Shown here piece after piece: positions 3,139-35,162 of a stretch of 39,011 nucleotides of DNA (position 1 is the first letter of the stretch; the number at the start of each line of letters is the position of its first letter). Source of the stretch: Fidelibacterota bacterium (GTDB lineage Bacteria > Fidelibacterota > Marinisomatia > Marinisomatales > TCS55); the NCBI GenBank assembly GCA_014381755.1, contig JACNLB010000133.1, positions 1 through 39,011 on the forward strand, read 5' to 3'. The notes beneath the pieces were generated by a model. It was not told where the DNA came from. It did not search any database and saw only the letters and a list, made by a program, of their open reading frames with translations. The translations under genes and the position numbers were made by a program.

Positions 3139-4632
3139 ATGTCTGACGATCAAAAAAGCCTAAATGAAATAATACGATTCCGTAAAGAAAAGCTGGATAC
3201 GCTCCGGGAGCGAGGTATAAATCCATATCCTCACAAATATAGCCCAACTCATACAAGTGAAAACATTCTTGAAAATTACGATGCGTTAGAGGAAAAAGAT
3301 GTTACTGTAGCCGGTCGAATAATGGCCTTACGCAAGATGGGTAAAGCATCCTTTTTTCATATTCAGGATATGGGCGGACGCATCCAAGTTTATATTAAAA
3401 GAGATGAAGTGGGTGAGGATGCTTACGCCAACTTTAAGAAAATGGATATGGGTGATATCGTTGGAGTCATGGGATTTCCGTTTACAACTAAAATGGGTGA
3501 AAAATCTATTCACGCAAAGGAATTCACCGTTTTAGCAAAAAGCATTCGCCCTTTACCGGTTGTAAAGGAAAAGGACGGTGAAACATTTGATGCCTTCGAA
3601 GATAAGGAATTACGCTATCGCAACCGCCATTTGGATCTCATCGTTAATCCCGAAGTAAAAAATGTATTTGTTAAACGAGCAAAAATTATTTCTACCATAC
3701 GTCAATATTTAGATAATCTTGAATTTTTGGAAGTGGAAACACCTGTTCTCCAGCCCTTGTACGGCGGCGCGAATGCCCGTCCGTTTACGACACATCATAA
3801 TGCGTTGGATCAGAAGCTATACTTGCGTATTGCCGATGAATTATATTTAAAGCGATTGATTGTGGGCGGTATTGACCGAGTGTATGAATTATCAAAGGAT
3901 TTCCGTAATGAAGGGATGGACAAGAATCATAATCCTGAATTTACTATGCTGGAATTTTATTGGGTCTATGCAGATAATGAAGATAATATGGAATTGGTGG
4001 AAGATATGATTCGAAAAACGGCCGAAGCTGTGGATACCACAAACGTTACTTGGCATGGAAATGAAATTGATCTGTCCAAACCATTTGCTCGTAAACCGTT
4101 ATTGGATTTATTAAAAGATGCGACAGGTCAGGATTTGGGTTCTGCATCGGAAGAAGAAATGAAAAAGATTTGCAAAGTTCATAATATCGATGTGGAAGAC
4201 ATTGCCAACTATGGACAAATGTTAGATGAACTTATGTGTGAATTGGTAGAGCCAAAATTGATTCAACCCACATTCGTTACCGATTATCCTAAAGCAATTT
4301 CGCCATTAGCTAAAGCACATCGCAATGGTGATCCCAATTTGGTTGAGCGCTATGAATTGTTTATTGGCGGTGCAGAATTTGCTAATTCATTTACAGAACT
4401 GAATGACCCAATTGATCAGCGAGAACGCCTGGAATCACAAGCCAAATTGCGTGAGCAAGGTGATGAAGAAGCACAGCCGGTGGATGAGAATTTCATTCAG
4501 GCAATGGAATGTGGAATGCCGCCAACAGGCGGAGTCGGTTTGGGGATCGATCGCCTCACCATGCTTCTTACCGAGCAGAATACCATCAAAGATGTAATTC
4601 TGTTCCCCGCCATGCGGACTGTCGATGAATGA
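3139..4632 (+). CDS. lysS: Lysyl-tRNA synthetase, class II
   Basis: This enzyme attaches lysine to tRNA-Lys in the cytoplasm. The 497-residue length is normal for LysS. An OB-fold anticodon-binding domain occupies roughly residues 55-150. The class II catalytic core follows, with motif 2 around residue 255 (FRNEGMDKNHNPEFTMLE) and motif 3 near 465-477 (GVGLGIDRLTMLL). The intact N-terminal OB domain separates it from the shorter paralogue EpmA, which modifies EF-P. The stop overlaps the start of the lolC-like gene by 4 nt (ATGA), making it the first gene of an apparent lysS-lolC-lolE-lolD operon. No partner gene suggests a special role. Confidence 0.98.
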   Translation: MSDDQKSLNEIIRFRKEKLDTLRERGINPYPHKYSPTHTSENILENYDALEEKDVTVAGRIMALRKMGKASFFHIQDMGGRIQVYIKRDEVGEDAYANFKKMDMGDIVGVMGFPFTTKMGEKSIHAKEFTVLAKSIRPLPVVKEKDGETFDAFEDKELRYRNRHLDLIVNPEVKNVFVKRAKIISTIRQYLDNLEFLEVETPVLQPLYGGANARPFTTHHNALDQKLYLRIADELYLKRLIVGGIDRVYELSKDFRNEGMDKNHNPEFTMLEFYWVYADNEDNMELVEDMIRKTAEAVDTTNVTWHGNEIDLSKPFARKPLLDLLKDATGQDLGSASEEEMKKICKVHNIDVEDIANYGQMLDELMCELVEPKLIQPTFVTDYPKAISPLAKAHRNGDPNLVERYELFIGGAEFANSFTELNDPIDQRERLESQAKLREQGDEEAQPVDENFIQAMECGMPPTGGVGLGIDRLTMLLTEQNTIKDVILFPAMRTVDE

Positions 4633-7740: not shown

Positions 7741-10245
7741 ATGAAAGAGAATTTTTCAAAGAGAGTCCAATTGATTATGAAGCATGCCAAGGAGGAAGCC
7801 GTACGCCTTGGGCATAGTTATGTGGGCTCAGAACATTTATTGCTGGGTTTAATTCGCCTCGAAGCTGGGCTGGGAGTGAAGATACTGGATATTTATGATA
7901 TTGATTTTGCTGATATGCGAGCCATGATTGAGGATATGATTAAATCATCCGGCGGAACCATGACACTTGGACATCTGCCGCTCACTCGCAGGGCCGAACG
8001 CATTTTACGAAATGCCTACAATGAAGCTGCTGCACTGGGTGCATCCGTTGCTGATGACGAGCATTTATTATTGGCTATGCTAAAAGAAACCGAAGGCATC
8101 GCTTATGAAGTCTTGAATTCCTATAACCTCGATTATGACGGCGTTTTAGAATTGCTGCATGATGATGCTACGGATGAAAAAGAAGAAGATGATGAATCAT
8201 TGCCTATAATTAAAAAAGAGAAAAGCAGTAAAAAGTCTAAAACACCTGCTTTAGATCATTTTTCACGTGACATTACTGTATTAGCAAGAAAAGGGAAATT
8301 AGATCCAGTCATTGGCCGTAAGGGTGAAATCGAACGTGTTGCTCAAATTTTAACACGGCGTAAAAAGAATAATCCAGTTTTAATTGGTGAACCGGGAGTC
8401 GGTAAAACAGCTATCATCGAAGGATTGGCAATTCGTATCAATGAGAAATCCGTTCCCAGGTTATTACACAATAAACGCATTTTATCTCTGGACCTTGCAT
8501 CCATTGTGGCCGGGACCAAATATCGTGGTCAATTTGAAGAACGAATGAAGACCATTATGGTCGAATTGGAAAATACGGATAACCTGATTTTATTTATTGA
8601 TGAGTTACATACATTGGTGGGAGCCGGTGGTGCTTCGGGTTCGCTGGATGCATCTAATATGTTTAAACCTGCTCTAGCTCGTGGAGATATTCATTGTATC
8701 GGCGCTACAACCTTGGATGAGTTTCGGAAGCATATAGAAAAAGATGGTGCATTGGAACGCCGCTTCCAGAAAATAATGGTAAATCCCCCAAGTCAGGATG
8801 AAACGATTGAAATTTTAAATGGGCTTAAAGAAGCATACGAAGGCCATCATAATGTTCGATACGATGAAAGTGCAATAGATGCCTGTGTATATTTGTCAGA
8901 CCGATACATAACAGATAAATATTTGCCGGATAAGGCAATTGATATTATGGATGAAGCCGGTTCCAGAGCTCATCTGCATAATGTTAGCGTTCCTCAGGAA
9001 ATTTTAGATATGGAAAAAGAAATTGATGAAATCAGAACGAGAAAAGAAGACGTTGTTGCAGCCCAAAAATTTGAGAAAGCAGCCAAATATCGCGACACAG
9101 AACAGAAACTGATAGTAAAATTATCGAAAGCTCAAAAGGAATGGCAAGAACAAGAACATTCCAAACCTGAATTAATTTCCGAAGATACCATTGCGGATGT
9201 AGTTGCACTAGTTTCAGGAATCCCGGTGAACAAAGTTGCAGAGTCTGAAACGAATAAACTTCTCAAAATGGAAGATACACTGAAAAAGAATATTATTGGT
9301 CAGGAACAAGCCATTAATAGTATTGCCAAGTCTATTCAACGTGCCCGAGCGGGATTAAAAAATCCAAATCGCCCCATAGGTGTCTTTCTGTTTTTAGGAC
9401 CAACGGGCGTTGGTAAAACAGAGTTAGCAAAAGTTTTGGCGAATTATTTATTTAGCAATACCGGATCCCTTATAAAAATTGATATGTCCGAATTTGGGGA
9501 ACGATTTTCTGTCTCCCGCCTGATTGGAGCACCTCCGGGATATGTGGGATATGAAGAAGGGGGCGAATTGACAGAAAAAGTAAGACGCAATCCTTACTCA
9601 GTTATACTTTTTGACGAGATGGAAAAAGCCCATCCCGATGTATTTAACCTATTATTGCAACTCTATGATGAAGGTGTATTGACAGATGGTTTGAGCCGTA
9701 AAGTTGATTTCAAAAATACGATTATTATAATGACATCCAATGTAGGAACAAAAGAAATTTTAAAAGGGAGTTCACTGGGCTTTGTTAAACAGTCTACTGA
9801 AAAATCTTATGAAGCAATGAGGGATAAACTTTTAGAAAAAGTTAAAACAACTTTCAGTCCTGAATTTTTAAACAGGCTGGATGAAACGATAGTATTTCAT
9901 TCATTGGCTGAAGAACATGTTTTAAATATTATCGATCTACAATTAGAAGATCTTCATAACAATCTGAAGCGTAAAGGGATGAAAGTTAAATTAACGAAAT
10001 CAGCTGTAAAATTACTTCTTAAAAAAGGATATAACCCTGAATACGGTGCCCGCCATTTACGCAGGCAAATTCAGAATAGCCTGGAAGATCCCATCGCTGA
10101 AATGCTCTTGGAAGAAAAATTTGTTACAGGTGACACTATAAAAGTGAATGCAAAAAAAGGTGAATTTTTTTATATAAAAGCACCTGTTAAAAAAACGAAA
10201 TCTAAAAAATCGACACCCTCCGTCGATTCGACCGAAGAAGTTTAA
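7741..10245 (+). CDS. clpC: ClpC-type AAA+ unfoldase, ATPase subunit of Clp protease
   Basis: This is a hexameric unfoldase that feeds damaged or tagged proteins to ClpP. The 834 residues show all ClpC parts in order. A double Clp-N repeat covers about 1-150. The first AAA+ domain has Walker A GEPGVGKT near 216 and Walker B LILFIDE near 282. A UVR-type coiled-coil middle segment lies near 440 ([11 protein letters not shown]), and the second AAA+ domain has Walker A GPTGVGKT near 553 and [11 protein letters not shown] near 622. The UVR segment separates ClpC from ClpA and ClpB. LGF near 679 fits the ClpP-docking tripeptide. There is no clpP, mcsA or ctsR in the window. No strong ribosome site precedes the ATG, so it may be read from the lolD transcript. 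The C-terminus is Lys/Ser/Thr-rich. Confidence 0.97.
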
Positions 10246-34435: not shown

Positions 34436-34591
34436 CTATAAGTTGAAGTTTACGCCAACAATTTTTTCACATTTCGGGCAACAATAGACTCGGTAATCGG
34501 CAAACCATCCGCCCTTAATAATGATCAAGTGATCCACTCGAACTTCACAGTGTGGGCATTTTGGCTTGATGTCCTTCTTTTCTGTCTTCAT
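34436..34591 (-). CDS. Small zinc-ribbon protein (51 residues)
   Basis: The minus strand from the ATG at 34591 encodes 51 residues with two CxxC knuckles, CPHC (residues 12-15) and CPKC (38-41, preceded by another Cys). Between them is a short beta-hairpin (VRVDHLIIIKGGWFADYRVY). This is a classical zinc-ribbon layout. A GGAG ribosome site lies 5 bases before the start, and the start Met is followed by Lys residues. I cannot name the family. A role in binding nucleic acid or protein would be typical, but no partner is visible. It is the third of three very small minus-strand genes. Confidence 0.72.
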   Translation of the reverse strand: MKTEKKDIKPKCPHCEVRVDHLIIIKGGWFADYRVYCCPKCEKIVGVNFNL

Positions 34592-34640
34592 CTTTACTCC
34601 AAATTCTTGATGGTTGAATGCTTAACTCACCGGCATTTTC

Positions 34641-34673
34641 AATTATCAATTTAAAATTGTCAATTGTCAATTT
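34641..34673. repeat. AT-rich short tandem/inverted repeat with TTGTCAA units
   Basis: The stretch between the 38-residue gene and the zinc-ribbon gene contains TTGTCAA-TTGTCAA in tandem (34657-34670). Just before it is a near-palindrome, CAATTTAAAATTG (34648-34660). Heptamer strings of this TCAATTG type are common in intergenic DNA of several bacterial groups. It could also fold as a weak hairpin. No function is assigned. Confidence 0.4.
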
Positions 34674-34678
34674 CATCG

Positions 34679-34795
34679 TCAGGTTGACTGGGGGTTATGT
34701 GGTTTTGATTTGTGGTTACGGTCATAGATTAATATCGCAATAAGTGCAATTATTCCGACAACTGTTATTCCTGTGAATAAAATAAATGCTTCCAT
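34679..34795 (-). CDS. Very small single-pass membrane protein (38 residues)
   Basis: From the ATG at 34795 the minus strand reads a 38-residue peptide: one long hydrophobic helix (FILFTGITVVGIIALIAILI) and a basic tail (YDRNHKSKPHN). Its ATG overlaps the stop of the upstream 60-residue gene by one base (TAATG). A GGAG site 6 bases before the ATG lies within the end of that gene, which points to coupled translation. I recognise no family, and the predicted orientation is tail-in. Function unknown. Confidence 0.55.
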   Translation of the reverse strand: MEAFILFTGITVVGIIALIAILIYDRNHKSKPHNPQST

Positions 34796-34977
34796 TATTT
34801 ACTCCTTATTAATGTGAAACCAATGATTGCTAATATCAACGTTGCAGAAACACCCATTCCTAATACTGCAAGTTTTGAAATACCATCTACCTTCAATATT
34901 GTGCTTAATACAACGCCGGCAAATACCAACTTGGAAATGTCTAACAAATAATCTGCAATCTTTTCTCTCATAACCAT
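34795..34977 (-). CDS. Small two-helix membrane protein (60 residues)
   Basis: The 60 residues have an amphipathic start (MREKIADYLLDISKLVFAG) and two hydrophobic segments (about 16-28 and 37-56). An AGGTG ribosome site lies 7 bases before the ATG. I recall similar small proteins with a 'YLLDISKLVFAGVVL'-type start in Bacteroidota; the family match is from memory and tentative. It forms a coupled pair with the 38-residue membrane peptide and shares a divergent promoter region with miaA. Confidence 0.6.
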   Translation of the reverse strand: MVMREKIADYLLDISKLVFAGVVLSTILKVDGISKLAVLGMGVSATLILAIIGFTLIRSK

Positions 34978-35162
34978 AATTTAACACCTTTTTACGAACT
35001 TTTCAAAAACACATAACTACTTACTATACTGCAAAAATGCCATATAGCACGCTTATTTTGTGCATTATACTGTATTTGTAATCTCTGGTTCATAGGCTAA
35101 TTTCTTCAGTAAAATTTATACCAAAATACTGTGACAACCAATTTCCATGCTTTTAAGAATAA
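34978..35162. other. Divergent intergenic region between the small membrane-protein genes and miaA
   Basis: 185 bases containing the regulatory block described separately (35023-35074), with the remainder AT-rich and without ORFs. The miaA ATG at 35163 has no strong ribosome site (TTTTAAGAATAA upstream). Confidence 0.5.
35023..35074. promoter_or_regulatory. Divergent promoter-like block with TGCCATATAG motif
   Basis: On the minus strand a perfect TATAAT lies at 35069-35064, and a related TATAGT at 35028-35023. Both sit in the repeated context TxCAGTATA(A/G)T, spaced 41 bp. Between them is one copy of TGCCATATAG (35039-35048), and a short GCAC/GTGC dyad lies at 35047-35063. The -35 regions are poor. 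The third motif copy links this site to the clpC-dnaK intergenic region. Promoter activity is inferred. Confidence 0.4.

What the first reader, a model, noticed from the sequence alone, without database searches (positions are those of the whole stretch)
34436..34977. Cluster of three tiny minus-strand genes: two coupled membrane peptides and a zinc ribbon
60- and 38-residue membrane peptides overlap as TAATG, and a 51-residue CPHC/CPKC zinc ribbon follows. Each has a good ribosome site. Genes of this size are commonly missed by annotation. The set could be a small envelope-stress or regulatory unit, but function is unknown.
Basis: partly seen in the sequence, partly recalled or inferred. Interest (0 to 1): 0.6.

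Follow-up and report, generated by a model that had tools for sequence, protein, structure and literature searches.

The report
Horizontally acquired two-peptide membrane gene pair
Two tiny overlapping membrane-peptide genes arrived as a roughly 390-base insertion in front of an older, unrelated zinc-ribbon gene; they belong to a mobile two-gene pair found in phages, plasmids and several bacterial phyla, whose second gene matches no family model and whose function is unknown.

Summary
The three ORFs exist as described, but they are not one unit. ORF A (60 aa) is a member of Pfam DUF6722 (41.5 bits, cut-off 27). ORF B (38 aa) matches no family model, yet it is A's constant companion: in all loci collected, 86 of 87 full-length A genes (83 of 84 clusters below 80% identity) are followed by a B-like single-helix peptide. 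The one exception has a truncated B plus an intact B 127 nt further on.

The A+B pair is patchy: 1 of 245 genomes of the window's phylum, 20 of 60 genomes of the Parabacteroides family (up to 14 copies each), sporadic in Pseudomonadota and Nitrospirota, and present in temperate Bacteroides phages and a cryptic plasmid. In the window it is a ~391-bp insertion; a congener has the empty site.

ORF C (zinc ribbon) predates the insertion. It is under strong purifying selection (21 synonymous versus 4 non-synonymous changes) but carries a stop codon in the congener. No A+B relative examined has a C.

Broken A genes with an intact B recur, whereas an intact A without any intact B was never seen. I therefore favour a toxin/antidote-like or phage-conflict membrane pair. 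That function is inferred, not shown.

The parts
34795..34977 (-). Gene A: 60-aa two-helix membrane peptide, DUF6722 (PF20482), conserved YLLDISKLVFAG motif
   Evidence: Pfam 1.6e-10, 41.5 bits against cut-off 27; two-helix model pLDDT 87.7; alignments A1/A4
34679..34795 (-). Gene B: 38-aa single-helix peptide with basic C-terminal tail, overlapping A's stop (TAATG), probably translationally coupled
   Evidence: sequence; B-like ORF follows 86 of 87 full-length A genes; 10 synonymous to 2 non-synonymous changes in a related pair
34623..35013 (.). Inserted segment carrying A+B (net about 391 bp; alignment ends at 35022 and 34624)
   Evidence: blastn against G003 locus L014: homology 36097-35022 and 34624-33201, with 6 bp between in the empty site
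35014..35018 (.). AGTTA, possible left copy of a 5-bp target duplication
   Evidence: direct repeat with 34623-34627 at the two insertion ends; the empty site in G003 has diverged, so not proven
34623..34627 (.). AGTTA, possible right copy of a 5-bp target duplication
34635..34672 (-). Heptad repeat (TTGACAA/TTGATAA) inside the insert, containing a near-consensus sigma-70-like site (TTGACA, 17 nt, GATAAT at 34670-34642) about 50 nt before C; may now supply C's promoter
   Evidence: promoter scan 11 of 12; the repeat pattern has only 9 exact matches in the genome, on 4 contigs
34436..34591 (-). Gene C: 51-aa zinc-ribbon protein, older resident gene, not part of the A+B module
   Evidence: ortholog in G003, 90% identical, with in-frame TGA; dN 0.034, dS 2.5

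Best explanation
A+B is a horizontally acquired two-peptide membrane module inserted between miaA and the older zinc-ribbon gene C. A (DUF6722) is a two-helix hairpin with conserved Asp and Lys at the start of helix 1; B is a single helix with a basic tail. Their genes overlap and, I infer, the products are made together and pack together in the inner membrane. Most likely it works as a conflict module: A perturbs the membrane or blocks something there (a competing phage, or the cell that loses the module), and B holds it in check. This would explain carriage by temperate phages and plasmids, patchiness and divergent copies. Shown: the A-B linkage, coding constraint, acquisition and insertion, and phage and plasmid carriage. 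Inferred: topology, physical contact, A harmful, B antidote.
For: B follows 86 of 87 full-length A genes (83 of 84 clusters below 80% identity), 9 with a second B. Both genes are under purifying selection. Empty site in G003. A absent from the other 244 genomes of the phylum; 20 of 60 genomes of the Parabacteroides family carry 1-14 divergent copies. Carried near the integrase in Bacteroides phages Versailles and BS-TP3, in IMG/VR viral contigs and on plasmid pRGF00007. About seven broken A genes lie beside an intact B (frameshifts L076, L010, L099; stops L038, L067, L095; a 5'-truncated A before a second intact B in L095), while no intact A lacks an intact B.
Against: The broken-A excess is only marginal given that A is longer (P about 0.04 for 7:0), and some frameshifts may be assembly errors. 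Flanking genes of the 60 chromosomal loci are mostly housekeeping; only 2 of 98 match PADLOC models. No match of A or B to a known toxin or defence family. No experiment.
Confidence: 0.45

Rival explanations
1. A+B is an obligate small-protein complex that serves as a superinfection-exclusion or lysogenic-conversion factor of temperate phages; chromosomal copies are prophage leftovers. Neither peptide is a toxin or an antidote.
For: Located between integrase and repressor, or next to the integrase, in Versailles, BS-TP3 and several IMG/VR contigs. Small two-helix phage membrane proteins that block superinfection are established (T4 Imm; own knowledge).
Against: Most copies lie alone between housekeeping genes without phage genes nearby. 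No match in the phage collection for the window-type protein.
Confidence: 0.25
2. A+B is a housekeeping-type accessory pair that modulates a resident membrane complex such as a transporter or oxidase, as AcrZ or CydX do.
For: Size and topology fit; weak, non-significant resemblance of single B members to CcmD and FixQ; in L006 the module lies inside an ABC-2 transporter operon.
Against: Neighbours are different at almost every locus; patchy presence, multi-copy divergence and phage or plasmid carriage do not fit a fixed partner.
Confidence: 0.15
3. A, B and C form one small envelope-stress or regulatory operon.
For: Same strand, within 542 bp, good ribosome sites.
Against: C without A+B in G003; A+B without a C-like zinc ribbon in the other loci read; 87-nt gap with its own promoter-like site before C.
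Confidence: 0.04
4. A+B is an integron gene cassette inserted at a secondary site.
For: GTTRRRY-like sites at both ends and an integron-integrase remnant elsewhere in the genome (C114).
Against: The supposed attC folds only slightly better than shuffles (z about -1.75) and its core is a heptad repeat found elsewhere in the genome; no shared ends in L004-L009.
Confidence: 0.05

Closest known systems
DUF6722 (Pfam PF20482) / phrog_23063
   Same: Gene A is a member of DUF6722 above the curated cut-off; 18 of 26 collected A proteins match phrog_23063
   Different: The family is described as a single protein of unknown function; here it is half of a two-gene module whose partner B has no family
GhoT/OrtT two-helix membrane toxins (type V toxin-antitoxin)
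   Same: Similar size (about 57-60 aa) and two-helix topology (own knowledge for GhoT)
   Different: No Pfam match of A to any family but DUF6722; the partner is a 35-aa membrane peptide, not the RNase antitoxin GhoS
Type I toxin-like small hydrophobic peptides (Fst, BsrG/TxpA, TisB)
   Same: B has their size and layout: short N-terminus, one helix, basic tail (own knowledge of those peptides)
   Different: No family match; B is encoded directly after A, and no antisense RNA was sought
Phage superinfection-exclusion membrane proteins (T4 Imm and similar)
   Same: Small membrane proteins carried in the lysogeny or accessory region of phages
   Different: No sequence match; obligate two-gene organisation; many chromosomal copies outside prophages

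Membership tests
DUF6722 (PF20482) | Score above the curated gathering cut-off | tested here: met
   41.5 bits against 27
DUF6722 (PF20482) | Conserved YxxDxxK motif at the start of helix 1 | tested here: met
   alignments A1, A4, A6
Toxin-antitoxin module | Two adjacent small genes kept together across lineages | tested here: met
   86 of 87 loci; overlap or short spacing; co-transcription itself not measured
Toxin-antitoxin module | Patchy, mobile, on phages and plasmids | tested here: met
Toxin-antitoxin module | Toxin never found without intact antitoxin, the reverse allowed | tested here: inconclusive
   about seven broken A with intact B, no intact A without intact B; P about 0.04 under a length-only null
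Toxin-antitoxin module | One product is toxic and the other neutralises it | not testable with these tools
   needs expression experiments
GhoT/GhoS type V system | Match to the GhoT family and presence of a GhoS RNase partner | tested here: not met
   only DUF6722 reported at E up to 1; partner is a membrane peptide
Known anti-phage defence family (PADLOC) | Match to a PADLOC model | tested here: not met
   no match for A, B or C at E up to 1
Integron cassette | attC hairpin at the 3' end | tested here: inconclusive
   weak fold, repeat-derived core, no shared ends

The most novel reading that the evidence does not exclude
DUF6722 plus B is an unrecognised, widespread class of conflict module in which both the membrane-active component and its antidote are tiny transmembrane peptides that act by helix-helix packing, moved by temperate phages and plasmids across phyla.
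Probability: 0.3. Interest if true: 0.75.

Novelty: new variant of a known kind. Interest (0 to 1): 0.5.

Why it matters
It turns a Pfam domain of unknown function into half of a defined two-gene module and names the missing half, a 35-residue peptide with no family model. That makes the function directly testable: the natural unit to express, delete or pull down is A+B, not A alone. If the conflict reading holds, it adds a protein-protein membrane toxin/antidote or exclusion system common in gut Bacteroidales and their phages.

Tried and rejected
Integron cassette: suggested by GTTRRRY-like ends and an intI remnant on C114; the fold is weak, the core is a genomic heptad repeat, and relatives share no ends. 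Defence-island association: suggested by type I restriction and MazF-like neighbours (own reading of the ORFs) of one Thiomicrospira copy; not upheld in 98 flanking genes of the Parabacteroides family. Short tandem repeats as a constant companion of the module: 1 of 84 loci has a clear one downstream. Rfam match: none. Homologs of C in plasmids, viral contigs and PDB: only a transposase-like zinc ribbon and chance matches. Papers naming DUF6722: none in the library; other literature searches empty or off-topic.

Full report
WHAT IS THERE. The window is contig C130 of a draft genome of 2.19 Mb in 160 contigs. The three ORFs are present as described on the minus strand: A 34977-34795 (60 aa), B 34795-34679 (38 aa), C 34591-34436 (51 aa). 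A and B overlap as TAATG; B and C are 87 nt apart. B and C have a GGAG 7-8 nt before the start; A's site is weaker.

A IS DUF6722. A scores 41.5 bits against PF20482 (cut-off 27) and matches phrog_23063. B matches nothing beyond chance in Pfam, NCBIfam, PHROGs or PADLOC, nor do B relatives. C has only sub-threshold zinc-ribbon matches. AlphaFold2 on 20 aligned A proteins gives two helices, 2-27 and 35-58, mean pLDDT 87.7, pTM 0.64.

A AND B ARE A PAIR. Relatives of A turned up in Pseudomonadales, Thiomicrospira, Nitrospirales and Bacteroidales genomes, and each is followed by a short hydrophobic ORF like B. Collecting loci from whole genomes, phages, plasmids and viral contigs gave 87 distinct full-length A genes; 86 have a B-like ORF, most starting between 4 nt before and 10 nt after the A stop codon, and the same number is found with a B profile. 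At 80% identity these are 84 clusters, 83 with an adjacent B. The exception (L007) has a truncated B and an intact one 127 nt on. In 13 test loci a B-like ORF was seen 13 times against 1.27 expected from resampled sequence. Nine loci have a second B. Between a phage copy and a Parabacteroides copy, B shows 10 synonymous and 2 non-synonymous differences, A 14.2 and 7.8. Caveats: the profile that collected the loci reaches beyond Pfam's own cut-off, though 18 of 26 collected A proteins match phrog_23063 independently; and the B profile was built from the same loci.

A+B WAS ACQUIRED. Of 245 genomes of the phylum only the window's genome has DUF6722. In congener G003 the same miaA-C-FG-GAP locus lacks A+B: alignment runs from miaA to 35022 and resumes at 34624, with 6 bp between in G003. 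A direct repeat AGTTA sits at both ends, 35018-35014 and 34627-34623; the diverged empty site leaves open whether it is a true target duplication. The miaA-mutL gap is variable in the genus: nothing in G005, other content in G001 and G002.

WHERE ELSE. 20 of 60 genomes of the Parabacteroides family carry 1 to 14 divergent copies. In wider samples at a stricter threshold there are 2 further carriers besides G249 among 395 genomes of its phylum, and none besides G245 among 398 of its phylum. Bacteroides phages Versailles and BS-TP3 carry it near the integrase, IMG/VR contigs carry it, several beside a repressor or integrase-like ORF, and the 5.5-kb plasmid pRGF00007 carries both genes. Flanking genes of chromosomal copies are mixed, mostly housekeeping genes, and 2 of 98 match PADLOC models.

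C IS SEPARATE. C is 90% identical in G003 and otherwise absent or only weakly matched in the phylum. Differences are 21 synonymous to 4 non-synonymous (dN 0.034, dS 2.5), far tighter than the neighbouring FG-GAP gene (dN 0.108, dS 0.466). So C is a real, constrained gene, although G003's copy has TGA in place of the Trp codon, which is a recent loss or a sequence error. The insertion ended about 32 nt before C's start. A near-consensus promoter-like site in the insert's heptad repeat (34670-34642) could now serve C; this is inference.

HOW IT PROBABLY WORKS. About seven modules have A broken by a stop, frameshift or truncation with B intact (L076, L010, L099, L038, L067, and two in L095), while no intact A lacks an intact B. 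Because loci were found through A, the sampling bias runs against seeing broken A genes. With A 60 and B 35 codons long, 7:0 has P about 0.04 under a length-only null, so it is suggestive, not proof. Together with mobility, patchiness and phage carriage, the best reading is a conflict module in which A acts on the membrane and B restrains it. A phage-exclusion complex without toxicity is the main rival. Neither topology nor contact was tested.

NOVELTY. A belongs to a known domain family of unknown function; no held paper names it. What appears new is the obligate partner and hence the two-gene unit, its phage and plasmid carriage, and its sporadic spread to other phyla.

Noticed in passing
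G000:C114:14307-14822 (locus L021): Integron-integrase remnant: 181-aa ORF matching TIGR02249 positions 1-68 and 208-313, with the middle missing, near a contig end.
   Followed up: partly
L014 (G003:C34:46000-60000), about 9022-9140: In the congener a deletion joins the FG-GAP gene to the tail of the FGE-sulfatase-like gene; the miaA-mutL gap differs among the members of the genus examined.
   Followed up: partly
G000:C56 (locus L022), C51, C108: TTGATAA/TTGACAA heptad repeats occur at few places in the genome; on C56 they lie between accessory-looking genes (an ATPase, a Schlafen/AlbA-like gene, a nucleotidyltransferase-HEPN-like pair; own reading of the ORFs).
   Followed up: partly
L055 (G248:C42:1-6883): Four A genes, most with B, within about 3 kb, interleaved with other small ORFs and Uma2-like genes.
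   Followed up: partly
L006 (4789-5320): An extra B and a duplicated start of an ABC-2 permease gene beside the A+B module, a footprint of tandem duplication.
   Followed up: no
L062 (Bacteroides phage Versailles, record 3238-3417): A lies on the plus strand but the deposited annotation calls minus-strand ORFs there, so the gene is missed.
   Followed up: no
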